A stretch of DNA of 35,815 nt from a virus. The stretch covers positions 1 to 35,815 of the IMG/VR virus record IMGVR_UViG_3300048929_000783; one strand, given 5' to 3'. Under the pieces are notes generated by a model. The model saw nothing but the letters and a program-made list of their open reading frames with translations. It was not told where the DNA came from and ran no database searches. Shown piece after piece: positions 2,143-34,870 of this stretch (positions are counted from its first letter, which is position 1; each line of letters opens with the position of its first letter). Both the position numbers and the translations under genes were made by a program.

Positions 2143-2811
2143 GTGGCAACCTTGGGTGAACGCATCAAAGAACGGCTGAACGCCGTGGGCCTCTCGCAGG
2201 CGGAACTGGCGCGCCGGATTGGCGTAACGCAGCCAGCGATCACCCATTTGATCAAGCGGGGTACAGGGGGCACGGCGCATCTGCACAAGATTGCGCGTGA
2301 ACTGGAAACAACGCCTGAATATCTAAATGGCGAAAGCGAAACTGCCGCCCTCCCGGATGGAGCGCAGCCAATCGCGATCGACGTCGTGCCGATCGATCCC
2401 GACCAGGTGGAGATCGATATGATCGACCTGGCCTTCGGCATGGGCGGCACCTTCGTCGACACCGACCACATCAACATCGAAAAGGTCGGCTTCTCCCGCA
2501 AGTGGCTCCGCCAGTTCACCCATTCCACGCCCAGCCAGCTTTTCACCACCAAAGGCATCGGCGATTCGATGCAGCCCACGATCTCCGATCACGACATCGT
2601 GGTCGTCGACCGCTCCGACCGCCGCCCCGAATTTGCCGACAAGATTTGGGCCATAGTCTTCGGCGGCGTAGGCATGATCAAGCGCCTCCGCCCCATGCCG
2701 GACGGCTCCGTGCTGATCAGTTCCGACAACCAACTGGTGCGCGATGCCCGCGCCGTGGATGGAGAATTGCACATCATCGGTCGCGTCGTAGCGGTTGTGC
2801 GCAAGGTTTGA
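2143..2811 (+). CDS. CI-like phage repressor (HTH + S24 LexA-like peptidase)
   Basis: 222-aa lysogeny repressor. Residues 5-60 are an HTH_3 domain (GLSQAELARRIGVTQPAITHLI). Residues 130-222 are an S24/LexA-like domain with the Ser in GDSMQP (S142) and the general base in VGMIKRL (K180). The start is GTG at 2143 with a modest AGGG about 8 bases upstream. No clear Ala-Gly or Cys-Gly cleavage site is visible between the two domains, so RecA-stimulated self-cleavage cannot be confirmed by eye. It is divergent from the Cro-like gene and should keep the leftward early operon, including ogr, silent. Confidence 0.88.
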   Translation: MATLGERIKERLNAVGLSQAELARRIGVTQPAITHLIKRGTGGTAHLHKIARELETTPEYLNGESETAALPDGAQPIAIDVVPIDPDQVEIDMIDLAFGMGGTFVDTDHINIEKVGFSRKWLRQFTHSTPSQLFTTKGIGDSMQPTISDHDIVVVDRSDRRPEFADKIWAIVFGGVGMIKRLRPMPDGSVLISSDNQLVRDARAVDGELHIIGRVVAVVRKV

Positions 2812-2850: not shown

Positions 2851-3522
2851 TTGAGCGCAAGGTATGTGGAAGATCGTAGTTTAAGGGAGAAAACGAACGA
2901 TCTGATCGCGCAAATAAAAGATGGATTCAATTCTTCGAAGGAGGCCTTTGTAGAATCAACCGATATCGTTTTAAAGATGAATGAATCTAACGATATAATG
3001 AAAGAAATTCCTATTATAAAATGGGTTGCGAAAATTGACGAATTCAAGTCTAATTATCATAAACGCAGGCTTCATCGTAATACTTCAGAATTTCTTAGAT
3101 CTGTTTCTCTTGGAGATAACTTAAATATAGAGCGATTGCACGATAAAATTACATCCGATGCGGCATTTGAGGCGGAATTTCAGGATATCATTGCCGATAT
3201 ACTATTGGAATCTTCTCGCCCTATGAAAGCTTTTATTCTAGGACGGTTGGTTTTTGAGTTAGCCTCGGGCTCCGTTCAACCGGATAAATTTGAAATGTAT
3301 TCTCACATCATTCATTCATCCTCCGTAGCGGCGCTCCATGCGTTAAACTCGTTTATGCTCCGAAATAATGCAGAGTCTGGAAAATCTGGGCATGGCGAAA
3401 TTCCCGAAGAGGGTCTTCTTTTCTCTCTTGGTGTGGCTCGCCGATTTGGCAATGGGTTTTTCGTTACGCAAGATGGCGTCGATCTATGGCGGCATGGATT
3501 TAAGGGCTGGGGTGTCTCCTGA
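2851..3522 (+). CDS. AT-rich accessory protein of unknown function
   Basis: 223-aa protein that I do not recognise. It is mostly helical and charged, with a short hydrophobic patch (IMKEIPIIKWVAKI, about residues 49-62), a basic segment after it (YHKRRLHRN), a second apolar helix near 125-138, and a C-terminal FFVTQDGVDLW stretch. The start is TTG at 2851, supported by GGAG about 9 bases upstream. Base composition is strikingly AT-rich against neighbours near 65 percent GC, a sign of recent transfer. It lies 39 bases after the repressor gene in the same direction, a place where prophages express conversion or exclusion genes during lysogeny. Defence or superinfection exclusion is inference. 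Confidence 0.7.
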   Translation: MSARYVEDRSLREKTNDLIAQIKDGFNSSKEAFVESTDIVLKMNESNDIMKEIPIIKWVAKIDEFKSNYHKRRLHRNTSEFLRSVSLGDNLNIERLHDKITSDAAFEAEFQDIIADILLESSRPMKAFILGRLVFELASGSVQPDKFEMYSHIIHSSSVAALHALNSFMLRNNAESGKSGHGEIPEEGLLFSLGVARRFGNGFFVTQDGVDLWRHGFKGWGVS

Positions 3523-3764: not shown

Positions 3765-5876
3765 GTGCCTTCGTTGACGCCCAACATTGAGAATCGCGTC
3801 CGCAAACTGCCGAAGCCATCAAATGCGACACAGGGCTTGCAGCCATTGTTCGAAGCCGTCAGCAATGCGGTTTTTGCAATTGAGGATCGCTTCGACGAAG
3901 AGATTCGGCGTGGCGAGGTCGAAATTCGGATTGCTGGGCTGTCTGATCCGCATGCTATCGAAATAACGATTACGGATAACGGCATAGGTTTGGATTTTCC
4001 CAGATTTGACGCATTTTGTGAGATAGATACCGATTTCAAACGCAAGCGGGGCGGCAAAGGTGTGGGGCGGCTCTTTTGGCTCGACGCCTTTGCGGAGATT
4101 GCAGTGGAGAGCGTGTTCGAAGCTGATGGTGTGCTCCTGCGGCGGGAGTTCGCTTTCGTGCTGAACAACGAAGAGCAGGTCGTTCCCAAGGGAGATGTGC
4201 TGCCAGTAGCCGACGGTAGCGCCATTGGCACAACAGTGCGCTTCAAGGGCCTCCGCCAAAACTATTCAGAGACGTTTCCAAAGCGGGCAGATACCTTTTT
4301 GAGGTATTTCAGCGCACACTTCATTGCGGATTTTCTTCTCGGCGATGGTGCCGCCATTAAGGTCGATCTCGATGGTGACGTGACTGAATATCCGAAGGCT
4401 GTCTCAGCACTGAAGGTTGGCAGTCCGCTCCAAACAAGTTTCAAGAATGATGATTTCGGTGAGTTGCATATCAAAGGATTTACCTGTCTTGCCGAGGCTA
4501 GCACAGGGTTGGAAGGGAAGCATCAGCTTCATCTACTTGCAAACGGCCGGACTGTAGAGACCCGTAAAGTAGATAATCTTTTGGGTGTCAGGGAACTGGA
4601 ACGCGAAGGACAAGCAGAACTGGTTTTTCATGGCTGTGTATCTGGAGAATATCTTGATCTTAGGGTAAATGAGGGGCGAACGGCCTTCAATCTTCCAGAG
4701 CGTACCCTCAAGAATATCAGTCGTGTCTGCATGGAAAAGGTTCGGGAGCGCCTTCTACCCGATCAGGTCAGATCCTATGTGGAAAAGCGGAAGCGCGATT
4801 ATGTTGACTTTGTTGAGCGCTATCCGACATTCGGCTTTGATGACGATGATACTCAACTCAACCGCGTACCCTTCCACGCATCGAACGCCGAGGAGTTCGC
4901 TTCTGGCTTGATCAAGTATCAGATCAGGAGGGAAGAGCAGCGACAGGATAGCCTGCAGGCGCTTATTAACGCACTAGACCTTGAAGATGTACCGGTCAGT
5001 TATGAGGCGTCCGTTGCGAAAGCTGTTAGCGACATTCAGACTTCCGAGAGATTGGCACTCGCACAACATGTTGTACGGCGTAAACTGGCATTGGAGTTGC
5101 TGGATAAGCTCATACGTAGGCTTCGCGCGAAGGAAGGACAAGAGGATGATTTCCACCTCGAGCGGACCTTGCATTCTTTCATTTGCCCAATGAGCGTGAG
5201 AGGTGACGATTCATCTGAGGTTAAGGGCCGAGCCCATGACTTGTGGGTGATCGATGAGCGCCTCGCTTTTACTCGCGCGTTTTCGTCGGATAAGCGCCTT
5301 GACTCTATCATTGCGGATGGAGGTTCGAGTGATAGGCCGGACGTAGTGGTGTGGGATTTGGCTTACGGGTTGGGTACTACTGATCCGGCGGATGCCGAGA
5401 TGGTTGATGTAACTGAACCGCTGCGAACTGTGTTGGTGGTCGAATTTAAGAAGCCAGGCAGGAAGCATTATCGTAAGGCGGAGGATCAGATCGAGCAGCA
5501 GATTACCAAATATCTGGCCCAAATGAAGGGCGGATTGATCGAAGCTTTTGATCGTGCACGCGTACGGGTGGCTGACGATTGTGTGTTTTATTGCTACGTC
5601 GTTGCTGACATTGTAGGAGATCTTGAGTTGCAGTTGTCAGGTTGGGACACGACTTCGAATGGGAAAGGGAGGATTCGTCAACTCCGTGGCCGATACAGTG
5701 GTCAGATCGAAGTCATTCAGTGGCAAGATCTTGTCAACGACGCGTGGATGCGCAATCGGGCGACACTCCACGCCGCAGGGCTTAGCCGCAAACGGACGAT
5801 GGATTTGCAGCCGCAGATTTCTGATCCAGAGCCGGACGACGAAGAATTGTTGGGCGGCGTCGATGCTGCAGAATGA
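3765..5876 (+). CDS. GHKL ATPase fused to PD-(D/E)XK nuclease, candidate anti-phage protein
   Basis: 703-aa protein from a GTG at 3765 with GGGGA 7 bases upstream; an upstream in-frame start at 3615 adds 50 residues of no clear protein character. The N-terminus is a GHKL ATPase: N box with E30 and N34 (LFEAVSNA), D71 in DNGIG, the glycine-rich lid GGKGVGR (about 96-102), and GSAIGTT near 151. The middle (about 380-480) is helical and charged. The C-terminus has nuclease signatures: D526 in RPDVVVWD, E560-F-K562 in VVEFKKP, and Q578-ITK-Y582, the D / ExK / QxxxY pattern of RecB/Cas4-type PD-(D/E)XK enzymes. It resembles MutL/MORC-like clamp ATPases joined to a nuclease. Composition is about 50 percent GC, unlike the phage core. 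It converges with gene D, 11 bases apart. Anti-phage function is inferred from architecture and location. Confidence 0.82.
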   Translation: MPSLTPNIENRVRKLPKPSNATQGLQPLFEAVSNAVFAIEDRFDEEIRRGEVEIRIAGLSDPHAIEITITDNGIGLDFPRFDAFCEIDTDFKRKRGGKGVGRLFWLDAFAEIAVESVFEADGVLLRREFAFVLNNEEQVVPKGDVLPVADGSAIGTTVRFKGLRQNYSETFPKRADTFLRYFSAHFIADFLLGDGAAIKVDLDGDVTEYPKAVSALKVGSPLQTSFKNDDFGELHIKGFTCLAEASTGLEGKHQLHLLANGRTVETRKVDNLLGVRELEREGQAELVFHGCVSGEYLDLRVNEGRTAFNLPERTLKNISRVCMEKVRERLLPDQVRSYVEKRKRDYVDFVERYPTFGFDDDDTQLNRVPFHASNAEEFASGLIKYQIRREEQRQDSLQALINALDLEDVPVSYEASVAKAVSDIQTSERLALAQHVVRRKLALELLDKLIRRLRAKEGQEDDFHLERTLHSFICPMSVRGDDSSEVKGRAHDLWVIDERLAFTRAFSSDKRLDSIIADGGSSDRPDVVVWDLAYGLGTTDPADAEMVDVTEPLRTVLVVEFKKPGRKHYRKAEDQIEQQITKYLAQMKGGLIEAFDRARVRVADDCVFYCYVVADIVGDLELQLSGWDTTSNGKGRIRQLRGRYSGQIEVIQWQDLVNDAWMRNRATLHAAGLSRKRTMDLQPQISDPEPDDEELLGGVDAAE

Positions 5877-5887
5877 AAGACCCTACT

Positions 5888-6949
5888 TCAAATTTCTCGC
5901 TTAAGCATCATTTTCACATTTGCAGTGCTTAGTGTCACCATGGATTTATAGCCTCCGCTGTCGTGCTCATGGGTTGTGCCGGTAATCTTCCAGGCTTCCT
6001 TGTCGATGTGGGGTCGGAACCCTGACAACGTCACCTGCGTGCTAGGAACTGCCCGCGCATCGCCATAGGGCAGGGTGATATTGACGGTGGCCGAGAGGTG
6101 GCCCAGCCGGCCAGATTCGGCCTGCACGGCTGCGTGGGCCGCCGTTTCGTTAGGATAGACACGCTTCAGCCGACGTCGATTGCTACCACCGGCCGTTACC
6201 GTCTTACGTGTTCCAGCATCCTGATCATGCCATTGCGCTTCAGCTCCATTGTAGGCTTTCTCCCGCGCCGCGCGGCGCCAGGTGACGCTGCTGCATTGCT
6301 GGCGGGTGATGGTCAGGCTGGGCAGGGCCTTACCGCCGGGCGTGGTCGTGGCGCTGCGCGGGGCGAAGATCAGGGTGCCGTCTTTGACTGTGGCCACGGC
6401 ATCGAACTGGCGGCCGAGATCGCGGATGAACTGCATGTCGCTCTTGTTGTGTTGCTCGGTGGCCGGGATGGTCCGGTCGGCCAGATCAGGGTGGCAGGCG
6501 GGGGTGAGGGCGTTGTCGGCGGCGATCTTGATAATAATCGCGCCCAGGGTCTGGCCCACCCAACTGCGCGTCTTGCGGGTGCGGTAGCTGCCTTTGAAGT
6601 CGGCACTATGGGCGGTGATCGTCACGCGGTCGGGCGGGCCGCTCCAGGTGAGCTCGTCCACCACGAAGCTGCCCTTGTCGACCAGGCCGATGGGCACACC
6701 GGTGCCGCGCGACCAGCCCAGCCACACGGCGATGCGCGCGCCCTGGCGGGGCGGGACGAACGCGCCGTCGGTATCGTGCACCACGATTTCCAGGCTGTCG
6801 GCCTCTTCGCCCAGCTTTTCGGAGAGGCGCAGGGAGAGAAGGCGCGGGGCGAGGGTGGCGGTGAGGTCTTCCCCGTCGAGCGTGACGCGCCAGGCGGCAC
6901 GGGGCTGGCTGTAGGGCGATTGTCCGGTGGCAGGCAGGCTCGCCATCAT
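5888..6949 (-). CDS. D: late control / baseplate hub protein gpD
   Basis: 353-aa gpD-family protein (P2 gpD is 387 aa). It forms the baseplate hub that holds the spike gpV, equivalent to the T4 gp27 fold. Recognisable features are an N-terminal hub barrel (SLEIVVHDTDGAFVPPR, residues about 45-65), a FKGSYRTRKTRSW segment, the QFIRDLGRQFDA stretch, and the closing HEHDSGGY...LSTANVKMML typical of this family. Tandem ATGs at 6949 and 6946 overlap the gpU stop, so it is translationally coupled. A frame extending to 7363 is only the shadow of gpU and gpT. Last gene of the leftward tail operon. Confidence 0.9.
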   Translation of the reverse strand: MMASLPATGQSPYSQPRAAWRVTLDGEDLTATLAPRLLSLRLSEKLGEEADSLEIVVHDTDGAFVPPRQGARIAVWLGWSRGTGVPIGLVDKGSFVVDELTWSGPPDRVTITAHSADFKGSYRTRKTRSWVGQTLGAIIIKIAADNALTPACHPDLADRTIPATEQHNKSDMQFIRDLGRQFDAVATVKDGTLIFAPRSATTTPGGKALPSLTITRQQCSSVTWRRAAREKAYNGAEAQWHDQDAGTRKTVTAGGSNRRRLKRVYPNETAAHAAVQAESGRLGHLSATVNITLPYGDARAVPSTQVTLSGFRPHIDKEAWKITGTTHEHDSGGYKSMVTLSTANVKMMLKREI

Positions 6950-7320
6950 GCCACCCGCGTCAATTCGAGAGTGAAGTCGATCTTGCGGGCCTGGCCGGTG
7001 TCGATCAGGTTCGATCCGCCGTTGGCCAGGCGATCGATGGTATAGGTGCCCAGGATCATGCCGGTGCCGTCCATCAGCGGCCAGGCCTCGCCCTCGCTGG
7101 CCATTTCCGCCAGGGTTTCGATGGCCGAGGCGCTGCCGGCAAGCTCGGGTACCAGAGTGCCGGTGAGCGTCACCTTGTCGTCGCCCACGCCCACGAACTG
7201 GCTGGCGGCGGGCGCGAGGAAGCGGTCGTCGCGCGCGTGGCGGAAGGCGCGGTCGCGCTCGATGCGGTCGGGCAGCATGGTCTGGCTGTCGAACACGAAG
7301 AGGCCAAGGGCAAAGAGCAT
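6946..7320 (-). CDS. U: tail protein gpU
   Basis: 124-aa gpU-family protein (MLFALGLFVFDSQTM at the N-terminus, then a central TLTGTLVPELAG and GTYTIDRLANGGSNLIDTGQARKI in pieces), which in P2-like phages is a small tail protein required for tail completion and stability. The start at 7320 is fixed by homology: the MLFALG opening is typical. A much longer frame continues upstream through gpT in another reading frame and is not real. It lies between T and D exactly as in P2. Confidence 0.88.
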   Translation of the reverse strand: MLFALGLFVFDSQTMLPDRIERDRAFRHARDDRFLAPAASQFVGVGDDKVTLTGTLVPELAGSASAIETLAEMASEGEAWPLMDGTGMILGTYTIDRLANGGSNLIDTGQARKIDFTLELTRVA

Positions 7321-20922: not shown

Positions 20923-21225
20923 TCAATGCATGCCAGGGTCGCGCGACACGTTGACGCGCACCGGCTTCCCGGTCGTCTGTATGTAAGGTACGGCCATCAG
21001 GAAAGCGCTGTGGTCCAGATCGTCGGCGACATTGGCCTTAATCTTTTCCATACCGCGCGGCTCCACCAGAGGCTGATCCTCGAACCAAAGTTCAAGCGCT
21101 TCCACGGCCTTGGGTAGCACGTCGGCCAGATCGTCGGCAGCGGAAAAGCAGCCGGGCAAATCCGGGAACGTCGCTCCCCAAGCGCTGTCTTCGTCTTTTT
21201 GGATCAGGGCAACGAAGGTTTTCAT
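20923..21225 (-). CDS. HicB-like antitoxin, short and without partner
   Basis: 100-aa protein with a HicB-type partial RNase-H-like fold: MKTFVALIQKDEDSAWGATFPDLPGCFSAADDLADVL shown in parts, where the FPDLPGC segment is diagnostic. Full HicB proteins continue after the PVRVNVS stretch into a ribbon-helix-helix or HTH domain, but here the frame stops at RDPGMH, so the DNA-binding part looks lost. No HicA toxin gene is next to it. It follows the HigA-like gene by 13 bases and converges on the spanin gene, 24 bases away. Either a domesticated regulator or a remnant. Confidence 0.72.
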   Translation of the reverse strand: MKTFVALIQKDEDSAWGATFPDLPGCFSAADDLADVLPKAVEALELWFEDQPLVEPRGMEKIKANVADDLDHSAFLMAVPYIQTTGKPVRVNVSRDPGMH

Positions 21226-21238
21226 GCAGCGCGACCAA

Positions 21239-21526
21239 TTACGCTGCGGTGGCGACTGAAAGCCGCAAGCCGAACGAGCGCAGAATGGCGGTGAGCGTAT
21301 CCAGCGAGGGATTACCGCCTTCGCCAAGGGCCTTGTAAAGCCCAGCGCGGCTGATGCCTGCGTCGGCAGCAACTTTCGACATCCCACGGGCGCGGGCTAC
21401 GTTGCCCAGCGCCAAGGCGATGACCGCCGGATCGCCATCCTCGAACGCGGCTTCGAGATAATGGCGAACGTCTTCTTCATCACCCAGATGTTCAGCGACA
21501 TCGTACGTCTTGAGTTCGATGGCCAT
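21239..21526 (-). CDS. HigA-like antitoxin (addiction module antidote)
   Basis: 95-aa antitoxin of the TIGR02684-type family: TYDVAEHLGDEEDVRHYLEAAF, then an HTH with MSKVAADAGISRAGLYKALGE, ending LDTLTAILRSFGLRLSV. It neutralises the adjacent toxin and represses the operon. The ATG at 21526 lies next to the toxin stop, with a strong AAGGAG inside the toxin gene end. Toxin-first order is typical of HigBA-type pairs. Confidence 0.88.
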   Translation of the reverse strand: MAIELKTYDVAEHLGDEEDVRHYLEAAFEDGDPAVIALALGNVARARGMSKVAADAGISRAGLYKALGEGGNPSLDTLTAILRSFGLRLSVATAA

Positions 21527-30442: not shown

Positions 30443-31261
30443 ATGTTGTCGACCCAAGTCGCCCTGGACGCACACGAGCCGATCACCCCGATCCGCCCGC
30501 CAGCACCCTATATTGGTGGCAAGAGCAGGTTAGCCAAGCGCCTGGTCGAGCGGATCAATGCTACCCCGCACACCGTCTATGCCGAACCCTTCGTCGGCAT
30601 GGGCGGCGTGTTCTTCCGCCGCGACCAGCGCCCCAAATGCGAAGTGATCAACGACTGGAGCGAAGACGTTGCCACGTTTTTCCGCGTGATCCAGCGGCAT
30701 TATGTGGCATTCATGGACATGCTGCGCTGGCAGATCACCAGCCGCGCCGGCTTCGACCGCCTGCGCCGCCAGGACCCGACCACGCTGACCGATCTGGAAC
30801 GCGCGGCGCGGTTCCTCTACCTGCAGCGGCTGGCGTTTGGCGGCACTGTAGTTGGACGCAATTTTGGCATAGATTTTGGTTCGAGTGCGCGTTTCGATGT
30901 CACCAAAGTCGCTCCCTTGATCGAAGCGGCTCATGAACGACTCTCCGGGGTGATCATCGAACGCTTGCCCTGGTCCACCTTCCTCTCCCGTTGCGATCGG
31001 CCGGGCACGCTGTTCTATATCGACCCGCCTTACTATGGCACCGAAGGATTTTATGGCTCGGACCTATTCGATCGCGACCAGTTCGACGCGATGGCTGAAC
31101 AATTGCGCGGCCTCAAAGGTCAATTCATCCTTTCCCTCAACGACCATCCCGACGTTCGTCGTATTTTCAACGGCTTCGCGATCGAGGCGGTGCCGGTACG
31201 CTACACCGCAGGAGGTATGGCGCGCAGCAAAGTGGAGGGGGAGGTGATTATCAGGGGGTGA
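30443..31261 (+). CDS. dam: DNA adenine methylase (Dam family, D12 class)
   Basis: 272-aa N6-adenine methyltransferase of the Dam/D12 class. Motif X is APYIGGKSRLAK (residues 21-32), motif I EPFVGMGG (48-55, binding SAM), and the catalytic motif IV DPPY at 194-197, followed by LSLNDHPDVRRIF. No nuclease partner is beside it. Phage solitary methylases protect DNA against host restriction or tune gene expression; the target site cannot be read from the sequence. An SOS box overlaps the ribosome site. A perfect hairpin follows the stop. Confidence 0.9.
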   Translation: MLSTQVALDAHEPITPIRPPAPYIGGKSRLAKRLVERINATPHTVYAEPFVGMGGVFFRRDQRPKCEVINDWSEDVATFFRVIQRHYVAFMDMLRWQITSRAGFDRLRRQDPTTLTDLERAARFLYLQRLAFGGTVVGRNFGIDFGSSARFDVTKVAPLIEAAHERLSGVIIERLPWSTFLSRCDRPGTLFYIDPPYYGTEGFYGSDLFDRDQFDAMAEQLRGLKGQFILSLNDHPDVRRIFNGFAIEAVPVRYTAGGMARSKVEGEVIIRG

Positions 31262-31299: not shown

Positions 31300-31522
31300 C
31301 GCCTTGCGGCCAGTTCAAGGCATTCGGCATCGTTGGTATGGGCGCAGCTTCTGCTAAATTCGGCCACTGAGATCGCGCAATTGGCCTGTCGGCTTCACGC
31401 CCACTTTCGGCCGCTCAGAAAACCGCTTGACCTCCTCAAAAGCGGATGCGGACGTGCGGAGCCAATGGGACACATTCTCGCAGGGTCTTGCGCATGACCA
31501 ACTCGTTAGCCAATGTGGACCC

Positions 31523-34500
31523 ATGAGGTCCAATCCTGATCGGTCCGCGCGCTTTCGCGCTCTCGCAATTGCCTACTACCAAGCCGTGCACGCTGCCGAA
31601 CAAGCTGCGGTCGAGGGTGAGGATGAGGCGCAGTTAACGGCACCGGTCAGCAATCTGTTTTCCGGCCTGTCAAGCCTCGCAGCGCTCGGTAATCTACGGC
31701 TCATACGGGAGACGCGGCTGGAGTCTACTCGCCCGGACTTTGCAGCGATCCTCACTCGCGCCGGAAAGACGTACCAAAAGGGGTACGTCGAACTAAAGGC
31801 GCCCGTCTACTCGGTGGATGCTTCCCTGTGGACAGGTCGCAATGCTCGTCAGTGGGAGCGGATGAAGAGCGAGGCAGAAATTCTAATCGTATGTAATGGC
31901 CTTCATGCACAGCTTTACCGCGACGGCGAACCGGTCGGTGCCGCTGCGGAACTGCCATACAATGACCCGGAGCACTGGGAGTGGACCAACCTCGTTCACC
32001 TTCTCGATTCGTTTTTTTCGCTTACCCCCACGCCGATTATCAATGTGGCAGAGCTCTCAAGGCGGCTCGCTGTTCGAACTGCCGATCTGCGAGACCGCTT
32101 GCTCTGGTTGCTGGAGCAAGAGGGGCCAGCGGCGACAGCGACGAACGGCGGCTACCAAGCTTGGCGTCAGCACGTATATCTCCATGCCAGCCCTAGGGAC
32201 TTCGCTGACGGCATTTCGCAAGTTGTGGCCTACGGCATGGTCCTGGCGGTGTTGTCGACGGATAGGTCCGCGTTAGACAAAGATGGCGATGGGCATATCA
32301 CCGTGGCCGAAGCTAGGGTTGCCATTAGAACGCTAAGCCCGGTTCTTGCTGCCGCGTTTGCCCCCCTAATCGATAAGCCGGCGCTTGCGCAGGCCGTGGA
32401 GATCGAGCTTGGCGCACTTGAGACTCTGGTAAGTGCGATCAATGCAGAGAGGGTGAACTGCAGCGGCGATCATAGAGGCGATCCGTGGCTCTACTTCTAT
32501 GAAGACTTCCTCAGTGTATACGATCCCGAAGAGCGAAAGCAGGCGGGCGTCTACTACACGCCTATCGACGTGGTGCAGGCAATGGTCAACATCACCGATC
32601 ACCTACTTGTCGAACGGTTCGGGAAGAGGACGGGGTTCGCGGATCCGACTGTCGTTACACTCGATCCGGCGACGGGCACAGGTACGTTCCCCCTCGCGAT
32701 TATCGATAAGGCCGCGGCGCGCGCAAGGGAGGTCCGAGGACAGGCTGGTCCAGCACAGGCCGCCGCAAACCTTGCCCGTACGCTGCTTGCTTTCGAGCTG
32801 CTTCCCGGTCCATATTCCGTCGCTCACCTTCGGCTCTCTCAGCGGTTGACCAGTCTGTCGAATGGGCAGGGCGCTGCGCGCGTTGTTCTCACCGACACGC
32901 TGGAGTCGCCGCTTGACCCTAATGATCAGCTTGCCCTGTTCGGTGACGCCGAAGTGCTCGCGGCCGAGCAGAACCGCGCGAAACGCATCAAGCTGGATCA
33001 GCGAGTGACAGTCGTCATCGGAAATCCCCCTTACCGCCGTGTTGAGCGCGAAATGGAAGGTCGCGGTTCAGGTGGTTGGGTCATTGACGGTCGCGTGCCT
33101 GGTCGGAGATCGAGAAAAAGCCTGTTCGATGACATTCTCGATATCGCGCGGGCAAATACAATTTTCAGCCATCAGGCAAGCCTCTACAATCTCTATGTTT
33201 ATTTCTGGCGCTGGGCGATGTGGAAGGCGTTTGAGGCGCATGGCCCCGGTCCGGGCGTTGTTGCTTTCATCACCGCTAGTAGTTGGCTCGCGGGACCGGG
33301 TTTTGTCGGGCTGCGCCAACTTGTTCGAGAGAAGTGTGATGAGGCGTGGGTCATTGATCTTGGGGGCAATAATCGAGGCGCAATCCCCGAGGAGAACGTG
33401 TTTGCGATTGAGACCCCGGTTTCGATCGTCATTCTCGTGCGGGATGGACCTTCAGATCGAGGAACTCCCGCAATTGTTCACTACCGCCGGCTGACTGGCA
33501 CAGCGGCGACGAAGCTGCAGGCTATGCGAGAGATCGCGTCCTCTGCATCGCCGCTAGATGGAGAGTGGGAACTTGCTCCTTCCGGGGCGCTCGACCCCTT
33601 CAAGCCTGCGACCGGCGGTGCCGGGTGGGCGGACATGCCGCTAATAACGAATATATTCCCTTGGCAGCAACCTGGCTGCAAATTCGGCCGGACTTGGCCA
33701 ATCTCACCGTCGCCTCAGCTACTCGAAGATCGCTGGCGGCGCTTTGCACGCGCGCCCGGTTTGGAGAAGGAAGTGCTCTTCTCCACCGCGTCCACTGGCC
33801 GCACGATCCACACGAAAGTCGCAGGCTTGCCACGTCTCGTTGAAGCGAACGGCAAAACTCCGCATCCGCCGATAGTACGGTATGGTTACCGAAGCTTCGA
33901 CAGGCAGTGGGCATACGCTGATCCGAGAGTAGCGGCGCTCGAAAGACCATCGCTGTGGCAAAGTCTCTCAGACAGCCAAATCTTCCTATGCTCCCTCTTG
34001 ACCGGCCAAGTCTCCGAGGGGCCGTCGTTGGTCTGCTCTACCGCTGTCCCCGACCTTCACTACTTTCGTGGGAACTACGGAGGGAAAGATATAATCCCCC
34101 TTTACAGGGATGCGCACCGGAGGTCGCCTAATCTAACACGCGGACTTGCTCGCCTGCTCGCAGAACGGTTGGAGATCGAGCCACCAAGCGTCGATGATGT
34201 CGCGGCATATGTCTACGCGCTGCTCAGTGCATCTGCGTTTCAGGCCAGATTCTCAGAGGAGTTGCGCACGCCCGGACTTCGGGTGCCTTTGACCTCGGAG
34301 TCAGACCTCTGGGGAGAAGCAGTCGATGCGGGTAAAGATCTCCTTTGGCTCCACAGCTACTGCGAGCGAATGCAGAATCCAGCACAAGGTCGAGGAAGGC
34401 ACCTTCCGCCTGTGGCCGGACTTGGCTGGGATGCACCGGTGATCACCATCCCCTGGGATCTCAATGATGTCAGCTATGACGAAGGGAGCGGCACGCTGAA

Positions 34501-34870
34501 GATCGGGGACGGTTGCGTCAGTGGCGTCCGCGCTGACGCCTGGGCCTACCAGGTGAGCGGCATGCCCGTTGTAAGGAAATGGCTGGGCTATCGTACGGCG
34601 AAAGGTGTCGGGCGTGCAACAAGTTCGGGTAGTGAACTCGACCGGCTGCGTCCGATCGCCTGGCTTGACGAATGGAATGACGAGTTGCTCGACCTACTGC
34701 GGGTGCTGACGTTGACACTGGATAAGCAGGAGGCGCTTTCCGACTTGCTGTCTCGCATCTGCACCGGAGAGCTGATCCCAGCGAATGTCCTGCCAAACCC
34801 AACGGCGGCCGAGCGAAAGGTTCCTCGTTCCAGCGCGGCCCCTGGATTTGCGTTCGACGGCGGCCACTGA
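31523..34870 (+). CDS. single-chain restriction-methylase, Type ISP/IIG-like without helicase
   Basis: 1115-aa enzyme from ATG at 31523; a TTG at 31427 would add 32 non-family-like residues, so the start is uncertain. N-terminal nuclease: RPDF (D72) and VELK (E90, K92), a PD-(D/E)XK signature. A helical linker holds an EF-hand-like loop (DKDGDGHITVAE, 252-263). The N6-adenine methylase follows: GVYYTP, motif I DPATGTGTF (381-389) and NPPY (501-504). The C-terminal third, with VSGMPVVRKWLGYRTAKGVG and EWNDELLDLLRVLTLTLD, is the Type ISP target-recognition domain. Type ISP enzymes carry a helicase between nuclease and methylase; here there is none and the length is shorter. Restriction of foreign DNA with self-methylation is expected. 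Confidence 0.85.
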   Translation: MRSNPDRSARFRALAIAYYQAVHAAEQAAVEGEDEAQLTAPVSNLFSGLSSLAALGNLRLIRETRLESTRPDFAAILTRAGKTYQKGYVELKAPVYSVDASLWTGRNARQWERMKSEAEILIVCNGLHAQLYRDGEPVGAAAELPYNDPEHWEWTNLVHLLDSFFSLTPTPIINVAELSRRLAVRTADLRDRLLWLLEQEGPAATATNGGYQAWRQHVYLHASPRDFADGISQVVAYGMVLAVLSTDRSALDKDGDGHITVAEARVAIRTLSPVLAAAFAPLIDKPALAQAVEIELGALETLVSAINAERVNCSGDHRGDPWLYFYEDFLSVYDPEERKQAGVYYTPIDVVQAMVNITDHLLVERFGKRTGFADPTVVTLDPATGTGTFPLAIIDKAAARAREVRGQAGPAQAAANLARTLLAFELLPGPYSVAHLRLSQRLTSLSNGQGAARVVLTDTLESPLDPNDQLALFGDAEVLAAEQNRAKRIKLDQRVTVVIGNPPYRRVEREMEGRGSGGWVIDGRVPGRRSRKSLFDDILDIARANTIFSHQASLYNLYVYFWRWAMWKAFEAHGPGPGVVAFITASSWLAGPGFVGLRQLVREKCDEAWVIDLGGNNRGAIPEENVFAIETPVSIVILVRDGPSDRGTPAIVHYRRLTGTAATKLQAMREIASSASPLDGEWELAPSGALDPFKPATGGAGWADMPLITNIFPWQQPGCKFGRTWPISPSPQLLEDRWRRFARAPGLEKEVLFSTASTGRTIHTKVAGLPRLVEANGKTPHPPIVRYGYRSFDRQWAYADPRVAALERPSLWQSLSDSQIFLCSLLTGQVSEGPSLVCSTAVPDLHYFRGNYGGKDIIPLYRDAHRRSPNLTRGLARLLAERLEIEPPSVDDVAAYVYALLSASAFQARFSEELRTPGLRVPLTSESDLWGEAVDAGKDLLWLHSYCERMQNPAQGRGRHLPPVAGLGWDAPVITIPWDLNDVSYDEGSGTLKIGDGCVSGVRADAWAYQVSGMPVVRKWLGYRTAKGVGRATSSGSELDRLRPIAWLDEWNDELLDLLRVLTLTLDKQEALSDLLSRICTGELIPANVLPNPTAAERKVPRSSAAPGFAFDGGH

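What the first reader, a model, noticed from the sequence alone, without database searches (positions are those of the whole stretch)
3765..5876. GHKL ATPase joined to a PD-(D/E)XK nuclease in a prophage accessory island
Seen: GHKL boxes (E30/N34, DNGIG, GGKGVGR, GSAIGTT) at the N-terminus and D526 / E560-x-K562 / QxxxY at the C-terminus of one 703-aa chain, in DNA of lower GC than the phage core, inserted between the repressor and gene D. Known: GHKL clamps such as MutL and MORC act on DNA, RecB/Cas4-like nucleases need accessory ATPases, and such prophage sites often hold anti-phage genes. Inference: an ATP-gated DNA nuclease that attacks superinfecting phage. I cannot place it in a named defence system.
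Basis: partly seen in the sequence, partly recalled or inferred. Interest (0 to 1): 0.78.

Follow-up and report, generated by a model that had tools for sequence, protein, structure and literature searches.

The report
GHKL-Shedu type anti-phage nuclease
A prophage gene encodes a one-protein bacterial immune enzyme, an ATP-driven clamp joined to a DNA-cutting domain; the architecture was predicted in 2008 (paraMORC3) and shown to block phages in Vibrio cholerae in 2025 (VcSduA), so this is a further member of a known kind.

Summary
Window 3765-5876 encodes 703 aa with a GHKL ATPase (E30, N34, D71-N-G-x-G75, G96-G99-G101-R102), an S5-like middle domain, a helical linker and a PD-(D/E)XK nuclease (E466, D526, E560-x-K562, Q579). 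In about 120 homologues from several phyla these residues are invariant or nearly so. AlphaFold gives pLDDT 87; the N-terminus folds like Hsp90, MORC, Topo VI-B and MutL, and the C-terminus matches Shedu nucleases best.

The architecture is paraMORC3 (Iyer 2008) and VcSduA, a Shedu type I-D protein shown in 2025 to restrict phages through the equivalent Glu and Lys (E27, K557). PADLOC-2023 and Pfam miss it because the nuclease has diverged from SduA_C.

The low-GC spot between repressor and tail gene D is a variable cargo site: sister prophages carry Septu, IetS and an nSTAND protein there. The same window also holds a type IIG restriction enzyme.

Verdict: new member of a known kind. What it senses, and how ATP gates cutting, remain open.

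The parts
3765..5876 (+). GHKL ATPase - PD-(D/E)XK (Shedu-type) nuclease gene, 703 aa, GTG start
3765..4364 (+). GHKL (Bergerat) ATPase domain, residues about 1-200; E30, N34, D71-N-G-x-G75, G96-x-x-G99-x-G101-R102
   Evidence: Pfam HATPase_c E=3.5e-4 in the window protein (below its gathering score) and matches in 61 of 68 homologues; invariant residues; fold match to Hsp90, MORC3, Topo VI-B and MutL
4365..4664 (+). S5-like transducer / middle domain, residues about 201-300
   Evidence: AF2 model; VIA-align alignments to Hsp90, MORC, MutL and Topo VI-B extend over residues 1 to about 340
4698..5129 (+). long helical linker, residues about 312-455
   Evidence: secondary structure of the AF2 model
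5130..5786 (+). PD-(D/E)XK nuclease domain, residues about 456-674; E466, D526, E560-x-K562, Q579
   Evidence: invariant or nearly invariant in 122 sequences; Shedu top structural matches Z 7.2/7.0/6.9; hhalign to Shedu prob 91, E 1.2e-6
2851..3522 (+). upstream low-GC accessory ORF, 223 aa, separate family, not co-conserved with the ATPase-nuclease
   Evidence: no significant homologue in the other loci then held; Photobacterium plasmid homologue at 33%; GC 0.41
2143..2811 (+). phage repressor, left border of the cargo site
   Evidence: phrog_4 transcriptional repressor E=5.6e-42
5888..6952 (-). tail gene D homologue of a P2-like phage, right border of the cargo site (start approximate)
   Evidence: ORF; conserved in 28 viral loci

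Best explanation
This is a single-protein anti-phage enzyme of the paraMORC3 / VcSduA kind (GHKL-type Shedu, type I-D), carried as cargo by a P2-like prophage. Most likely, two chains dimerise through ATP-bound GHKL domains and form a clamp with the S5-like middle domains (inferred from the fold family). ATP binding or hydrolysis, coupled to engagement of foreign DNA, moves the helical linker and licenses the C-terminal nuclease, which cuts the DNA with a metal-dependent E466 / D526 / E560-x-K562 active site. The lysogen is thereby protected from superinfecting phages by direct restriction rather than suicide. Shown here: domains, conservation, fold and genomic context. Shown elsewhere for VcSduA: both activities are needed and protection holds at high phage load. 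Inferred: dimer clamp, DNA as target, what is sensed.
For: Invariant GHKL and nuclease residues across homologues. AF2 pLDDT 87 full length and 83 for the nuclease alone. N-terminal half aligns to Hsp90, MORC3, MutL and Topo VI-B at Z 16-18. Nuclease: the top three structural matches are B. cereus and E. coli Shedu; profile match to Shedu prob 91, score 52.7 against at most 20.8 for 40 shuffled and 12.4 for the reversed control. VcSduA has the same layout, and E27A and K557A abolish defence (PMC12137116); E-to-K spacing there is 530, family median 528, window protein 532. Iyer 2008 defines paraMORC3 as GHKL + S5 + RE-fold nuclease with E-D-ExK. Six of 11 plasmid homologues sit beside RM, CBASS, AbiE or Abi genes. 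The cargo spot holds Septu, IetS or an nSTAND protein in sister prophages.
Against: Pfam SduA_C (PF14082) does not detect the nuclease. Structural Z for the nuclease is only about 7 and tied within 1 with BspD6I. The VcSduA sequence itself could not be compared. No activity data for this protein. The neighbourhood count has no proper control.
Confidence: 0.8

Rival explanations
1. An ATP-gated nuclease that triggers abortive infection (damages host DNA or RNA on infection) rather than restricting phage DNA directly.
For: Some PD-(D/E)XK defence effectors act by abortive infection, for example WonB, whose target is probably rRNA or tRNA (PMC12137116). Nothing computed here tells the target.
Against: VcSduA protects at all tested phage loads, which its authors read as restricting the phage while preserving the host (PMC12137116).
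Confidence: 0.12
2. A housekeeping or repair factor (MutL-like or Topo VI-like) or a phage replication/recombination gene, not an immune gene.
For: The N-terminal fold is shared with MutL, Topo VI-B and gyrase.
Against: Patchy distribution (6 of 296 genomes of one order), plasmids, prophages and defence neighbours, different cargo at the same spot in sister phages, invariant fused nuclease.
Confidence: 0.05
3. A subunit of a larger restriction system that needs partner genes supplied elsewhere (as in the type I RM operons of Vibrio fluvialis and Salinivibrio).
For: Homologues are the last gene of a type I RM operon in Vibrio fluvialis and Salinivibrio; the same prophage carries a type IIG RM enzyme, though about 25 kb away.
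Against: VcSduA works alone in E. coli (PMC12137116); most homologues examined have no conserved partner, and the upstream ORF is not conserved with it.
Confidence: 0.08

Closest known systems
VcSduA, GHKL-type Shedu (type I-D) of Vibrio cholerae VSP-II (PMC12137116)
   Same: Single protein; N-terminal GHKL ATPase, clamp-like middle domain, C-terminal PD-(D/E)XK; essential Glu and Lys at matching positions (E27/K557 there, E30/K562 here)
   Different: Host and carrier (pandemic island against P2-like prophage); VcSduA sequence not available here, so identity unknown; SduA_C / DUF4263 not detected by Pfam in the window protein
paraMORC3 family (Iyer, Abhiman and Aravind 2008, PMC2292703)
   Same: GHKL + S5 + C-terminal RE-fold nuclease with E-D-ExK; proteobacteria and bacteroidetes; often standalone genes
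   Different: 2008 text gives no defence assay; member list not compared sequence by sequence
Shedu SduA (B. cereus 8TI8/8TI9, E. coli 8PS4/8PS5)
   Same: C-terminal nuclease fold and catalytic pattern; hhalign prob 91; top VIA-align rows
   Different: N-terminal sensor differs: no GHKL ATPase; E. coli SduA is a homotetramer that senses DNA ends (PMC12904381), whereas a tetramer model was not well supported for VcSduA
MutL, MORC and Topo VI-B
   Same: GHKL-S5 ATPase module (Z 16-18)
   Different: Different or no nuclease; chromosome functions

Membership tests
paraMORC3 / VcSduA-type (GHKL-Shedu, type I-D) | N-terminal GHKL ATPase with motifs I-IV | tested here: met
   fold
paraMORC3 / VcSduA-type (GHKL-Shedu, type I-D) | S5-type middle domain after GHKL | tested here: met
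   AF2 model and VIA-align alignments over residues 1 to about 340 to MORC3, MutL, Topo VI-B and Hsp90
paraMORC3 / VcSduA-type (GHKL-Shedu, type I-D) | C-terminal RE-fold nuclease with E-D-ExK | tested here: met
   E466, D526, E560, K562 in 122 of 122; PD-(D/E)XK structures fill the top VIA-align rows
paraMORC3 / VcSduA-type (GHKL-Shedu, type I-D) | Direct sequence homology to V. cholerae VcSduA | not tested
   Sequence not found in the collections searched; only residue numbering compared
paraMORC3 / VcSduA-type (GHKL-Shedu, type I-D) | Anti-phage activity needing ATPase Glu and nuclease Lys | not testable with these tools
   shown for VcSduA only (PMC12137116)
Shedu by Pfam definition | SduA_C / DUF4263 (PF14082) profile match | tested here: not met
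   no match in the window protein; best E 0.15 in 1 of 13 homologues; not among the families listed for 68 homologues at E 0.1
Shedu nuclease core by profile and fold | Remote homology of the nuclease to SduA | tested here: met
   hhalign prob 90.9, E 1.2e-6, shuffled and reversed controls fail; top VIA-align hits 8ti9, 8ps5, 8ps4, Z about 7, tied within 1 with 2p14
PADLOC-DB 2023 defence systems | Match to any model | tested here: not met
   (only weak TmtA and PtuB matches in single homologues)
MutL | MutL C-terminal endonuclease or dimerisation domain | tested here: not met
   C-terminus is PD-(D/E)XK; no MutL C-terminal Pfam match

The most novel reading that the evidence does not exclude
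The family is a separate defence type in which a MORC/MutL-like ATP clamp, not a Shedu-style end sensor, decides when a PD-(D/E)XK nuclease may cut, possibly by reading DNA topology or strand state, and P2-like prophages shuttle it through a previously undescribed cargo site between repressor and gene D.
Probability: 0.2. Interest if true: 0.55.

Novelty: new member of a known kind. Interest (0 to 1): 0.27.

Why it matters
It shows that GHKL-type Shedu nucleases travel on P2-like prophages and are missed by the Pfam and 2023 PADLOC models tested here, so defence surveys based on such models may under-count them. An alignment of 68 diverse members gives ready mutants and a clean test bed for how a MORC/MutL-like ATP clamp gates a nuclease, an open mechanism. 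The repressor-gene D site adds a place to look for further defence genes.

Tried and rejected
PADLOC, PHROGs, NCBIfam and Pfam gave no family name beyond weak HATPase_c. Sequence searches of the PDB with the protein or its profiles found no convincing match for the nuclease and only weak GHKL hits. Foldseek alone ranked McrC and FokI weakly for the nuclease with no Shedu among its 50 rows; VIA-align put Shedu first. The upstream ORF 2851-3522 was considered as a partner and rejected: no significant homologue in the other loci. WonAB, described in the same paper, was considered and rejected: its ATPase is an ABC type. Attempts to reach VcSduA itself through DUF262 neighbours (GrwAB) in gammaproteobacterial genomes showed no adjacent DUF262 gene. 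A whole-genome search with PF14082 in eight genomes that carry homologues found no match at those genes. The paper defining Shedu types (Gu 2025) is not held. Relatives of the host genome could not be drawn because the window is a virus record. A scan for Shedu relatives in viral contigs found none.

Full report
Observation. The ORF at 3765-5876 encodes 703 residues without a stop. Homologues align from residue 1 and annotated genes start at the same position, so the GTG start is well supported. In 68 diverse homologues E30, N34, D71, G73, G75, G96, G99, G101, R102, E466, D526, E560, K562 and Q579 are invariant; in a larger set E466, D526, E560 and K562 are present in 122 of 122 and Q579 in 120. 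The gene has GC 0.52 and GC3 0.54 against 0.65-0.67 and 0.78-0.89 for the tail genes beside it.

What it is. Library scans give only weak HATPase_c in the window protein, but it is found in 61 of 68 homologues. AlphaFold2 on the 68-row alignment gives mean pLDDT 87. The N-terminal 340 residues or so align with Hsp90, MORC3, Topo VI-B and MutL at Z 16-18. The nuclease predicted alone has pLDDT 83 and pTM 0.83. Its best VIA-align matches are B. cereus Shedu (Z 7.2, 4.2 A over 146 residues) and E. coli SduA (7.0, 6.9), followed by BspD6I, EndoMS, FokI, McrC and other PD-(D/E)XK enzymes; Z values within 1 are ties. Profile comparison with nine Shedu proteins gives probability 91, E 1.2e-6, with ExK on ExK and the C-terminal strand motif IEVIxW on IITFDEL. 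Column-shuffled and reversed controls reach at most score 20.8 against 52.7. Pfam's SduA_C model does not detect it.

Known counterpart. Iyer and colleagues (PMC2292703) defined paraMORC3 as GHKL + S5 + RE-fold nuclease with E-D-ExK, in proteobacteria and bacteroidetes, partly as standalone genes. Adams and colleagues (PMC12137116) showed that VcSduA, of this architecture, blocks Drexlerviridae in E. coli and vibriophage X29 in V. cholerae, that E27A and K557A abolish activity, that protection holds at all phage loads tested, and placed it in Shedu type I-D. The E-to-K spacing is 530 in VcSduA, 532 here, median 528 in the family; several members carry exactly E27 and K557.

Distribution and neighbours. 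In 296 genomes of one gammaproteobacterial order six have one, near the 1.2% published. Of 11 plasmid homologues inspected, six lie within 12 kb of recognised defence genes: type I RM in Vibrio fluvialis, Salinivibrio and Rhodococcus, CBASS in Acinetobacter, AbiE in Hymenobacter, Abi in Phaeobacter. Six stretches elsewhere on those same plasmids show one defence gene, a cas6 cut at the edge; these controls were picked after the fact and weigh little.

The prophage site. Twenty-two related viral loci have both gene D and the repressor. The gap between them is 0.9-5.3 kb, lower in GC than the locus in every case, and its content differs between lineages. Proteins tested from eight loci (two of them without a detected repressor) include Septu PtuA/PtuB (L172), IetS (L154), an nSTAND-type candidate (L152), an HD-CE protein with a GHKL ATPase (L150) and a double-GHKL protein with HEF_HK (L174). 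Homologues of the window gene also lie near gene D in two other P2-like prophages at 39% and 26% identity (L060/L108, L121). P2-like cargo sites rich in defence genes are known at other positions (PMC9122126, PMC9519451). In this window a type IIG restriction-modification enzyme lies at the other end.

Mechanism. Fold, conservation and the VcSduA genetics support an ATP-gated nuclease acting directly on incoming phage DNA. The dimer clamp, DNA as substrate and the sensed feature are inferences. E. coli SduA senses DNA ends with a different N-terminal clamp (PMC12904381); here the GHKL-S5 module takes that place, so the trigger may differ.

Verdict. The finding is real and well read, but it belongs to an already described kind. 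Interest is modest; the prophage site and the undetected divergence from Shedu models are the useful additions.

Noticed in passing
window 31427-34870 (+) and 30443-31261 (+): Type IIG restriction-modification enzyme (PADLOC E 5e-254, Type_ISP_C) next to a D12-class adenine methyltransferase, in lower-GC DNA at the other end of the same prophage.
   Followed up: partly
window 2851-3522 (+): 223-aa ORF of unknown family, GC 0.41, start codon TTG as listed; only Photobacterium damselae plasmid homologues (33%) were found among plasmids and none in phages.
   Followed up: partly
window 20923-21387 (-): HicB-like antitoxin domain (PF15919, E 6.6e-15) in the phage region; no HicA partner looked for.
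   Followed up: no
L002 10622-14016: In Vibrio fluvialis an SduA-type Shedu gene overlaps the GHKL-nuclease gene by 4 bases at the end of a type I RM operon; the closely similar Salinivibrio operon (L010) lacks the Shedu gene.
   Followed up: partly
L178 7452-10857: In Rhizobium sp. B21/90 a distant GHKL protein with its own RPD...EIKKPG nuclease motif sits just upstream of a Shedu gene: a second GHKL-nuclease/Shedu pairing.
   Followed up: partly
L013 2485-4509: Phage vB_RanS_PJN03 encodes a homologue annotated as N-acetylmuramoyl-L-alanine amidase, apparently a misannotation.
   Followed up: no
L174 7669-10593: 974-aa protein with two GHKL ATPase domains and a HEF_HK domain downstream of gene D in a related prophage.
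   Followed up: no
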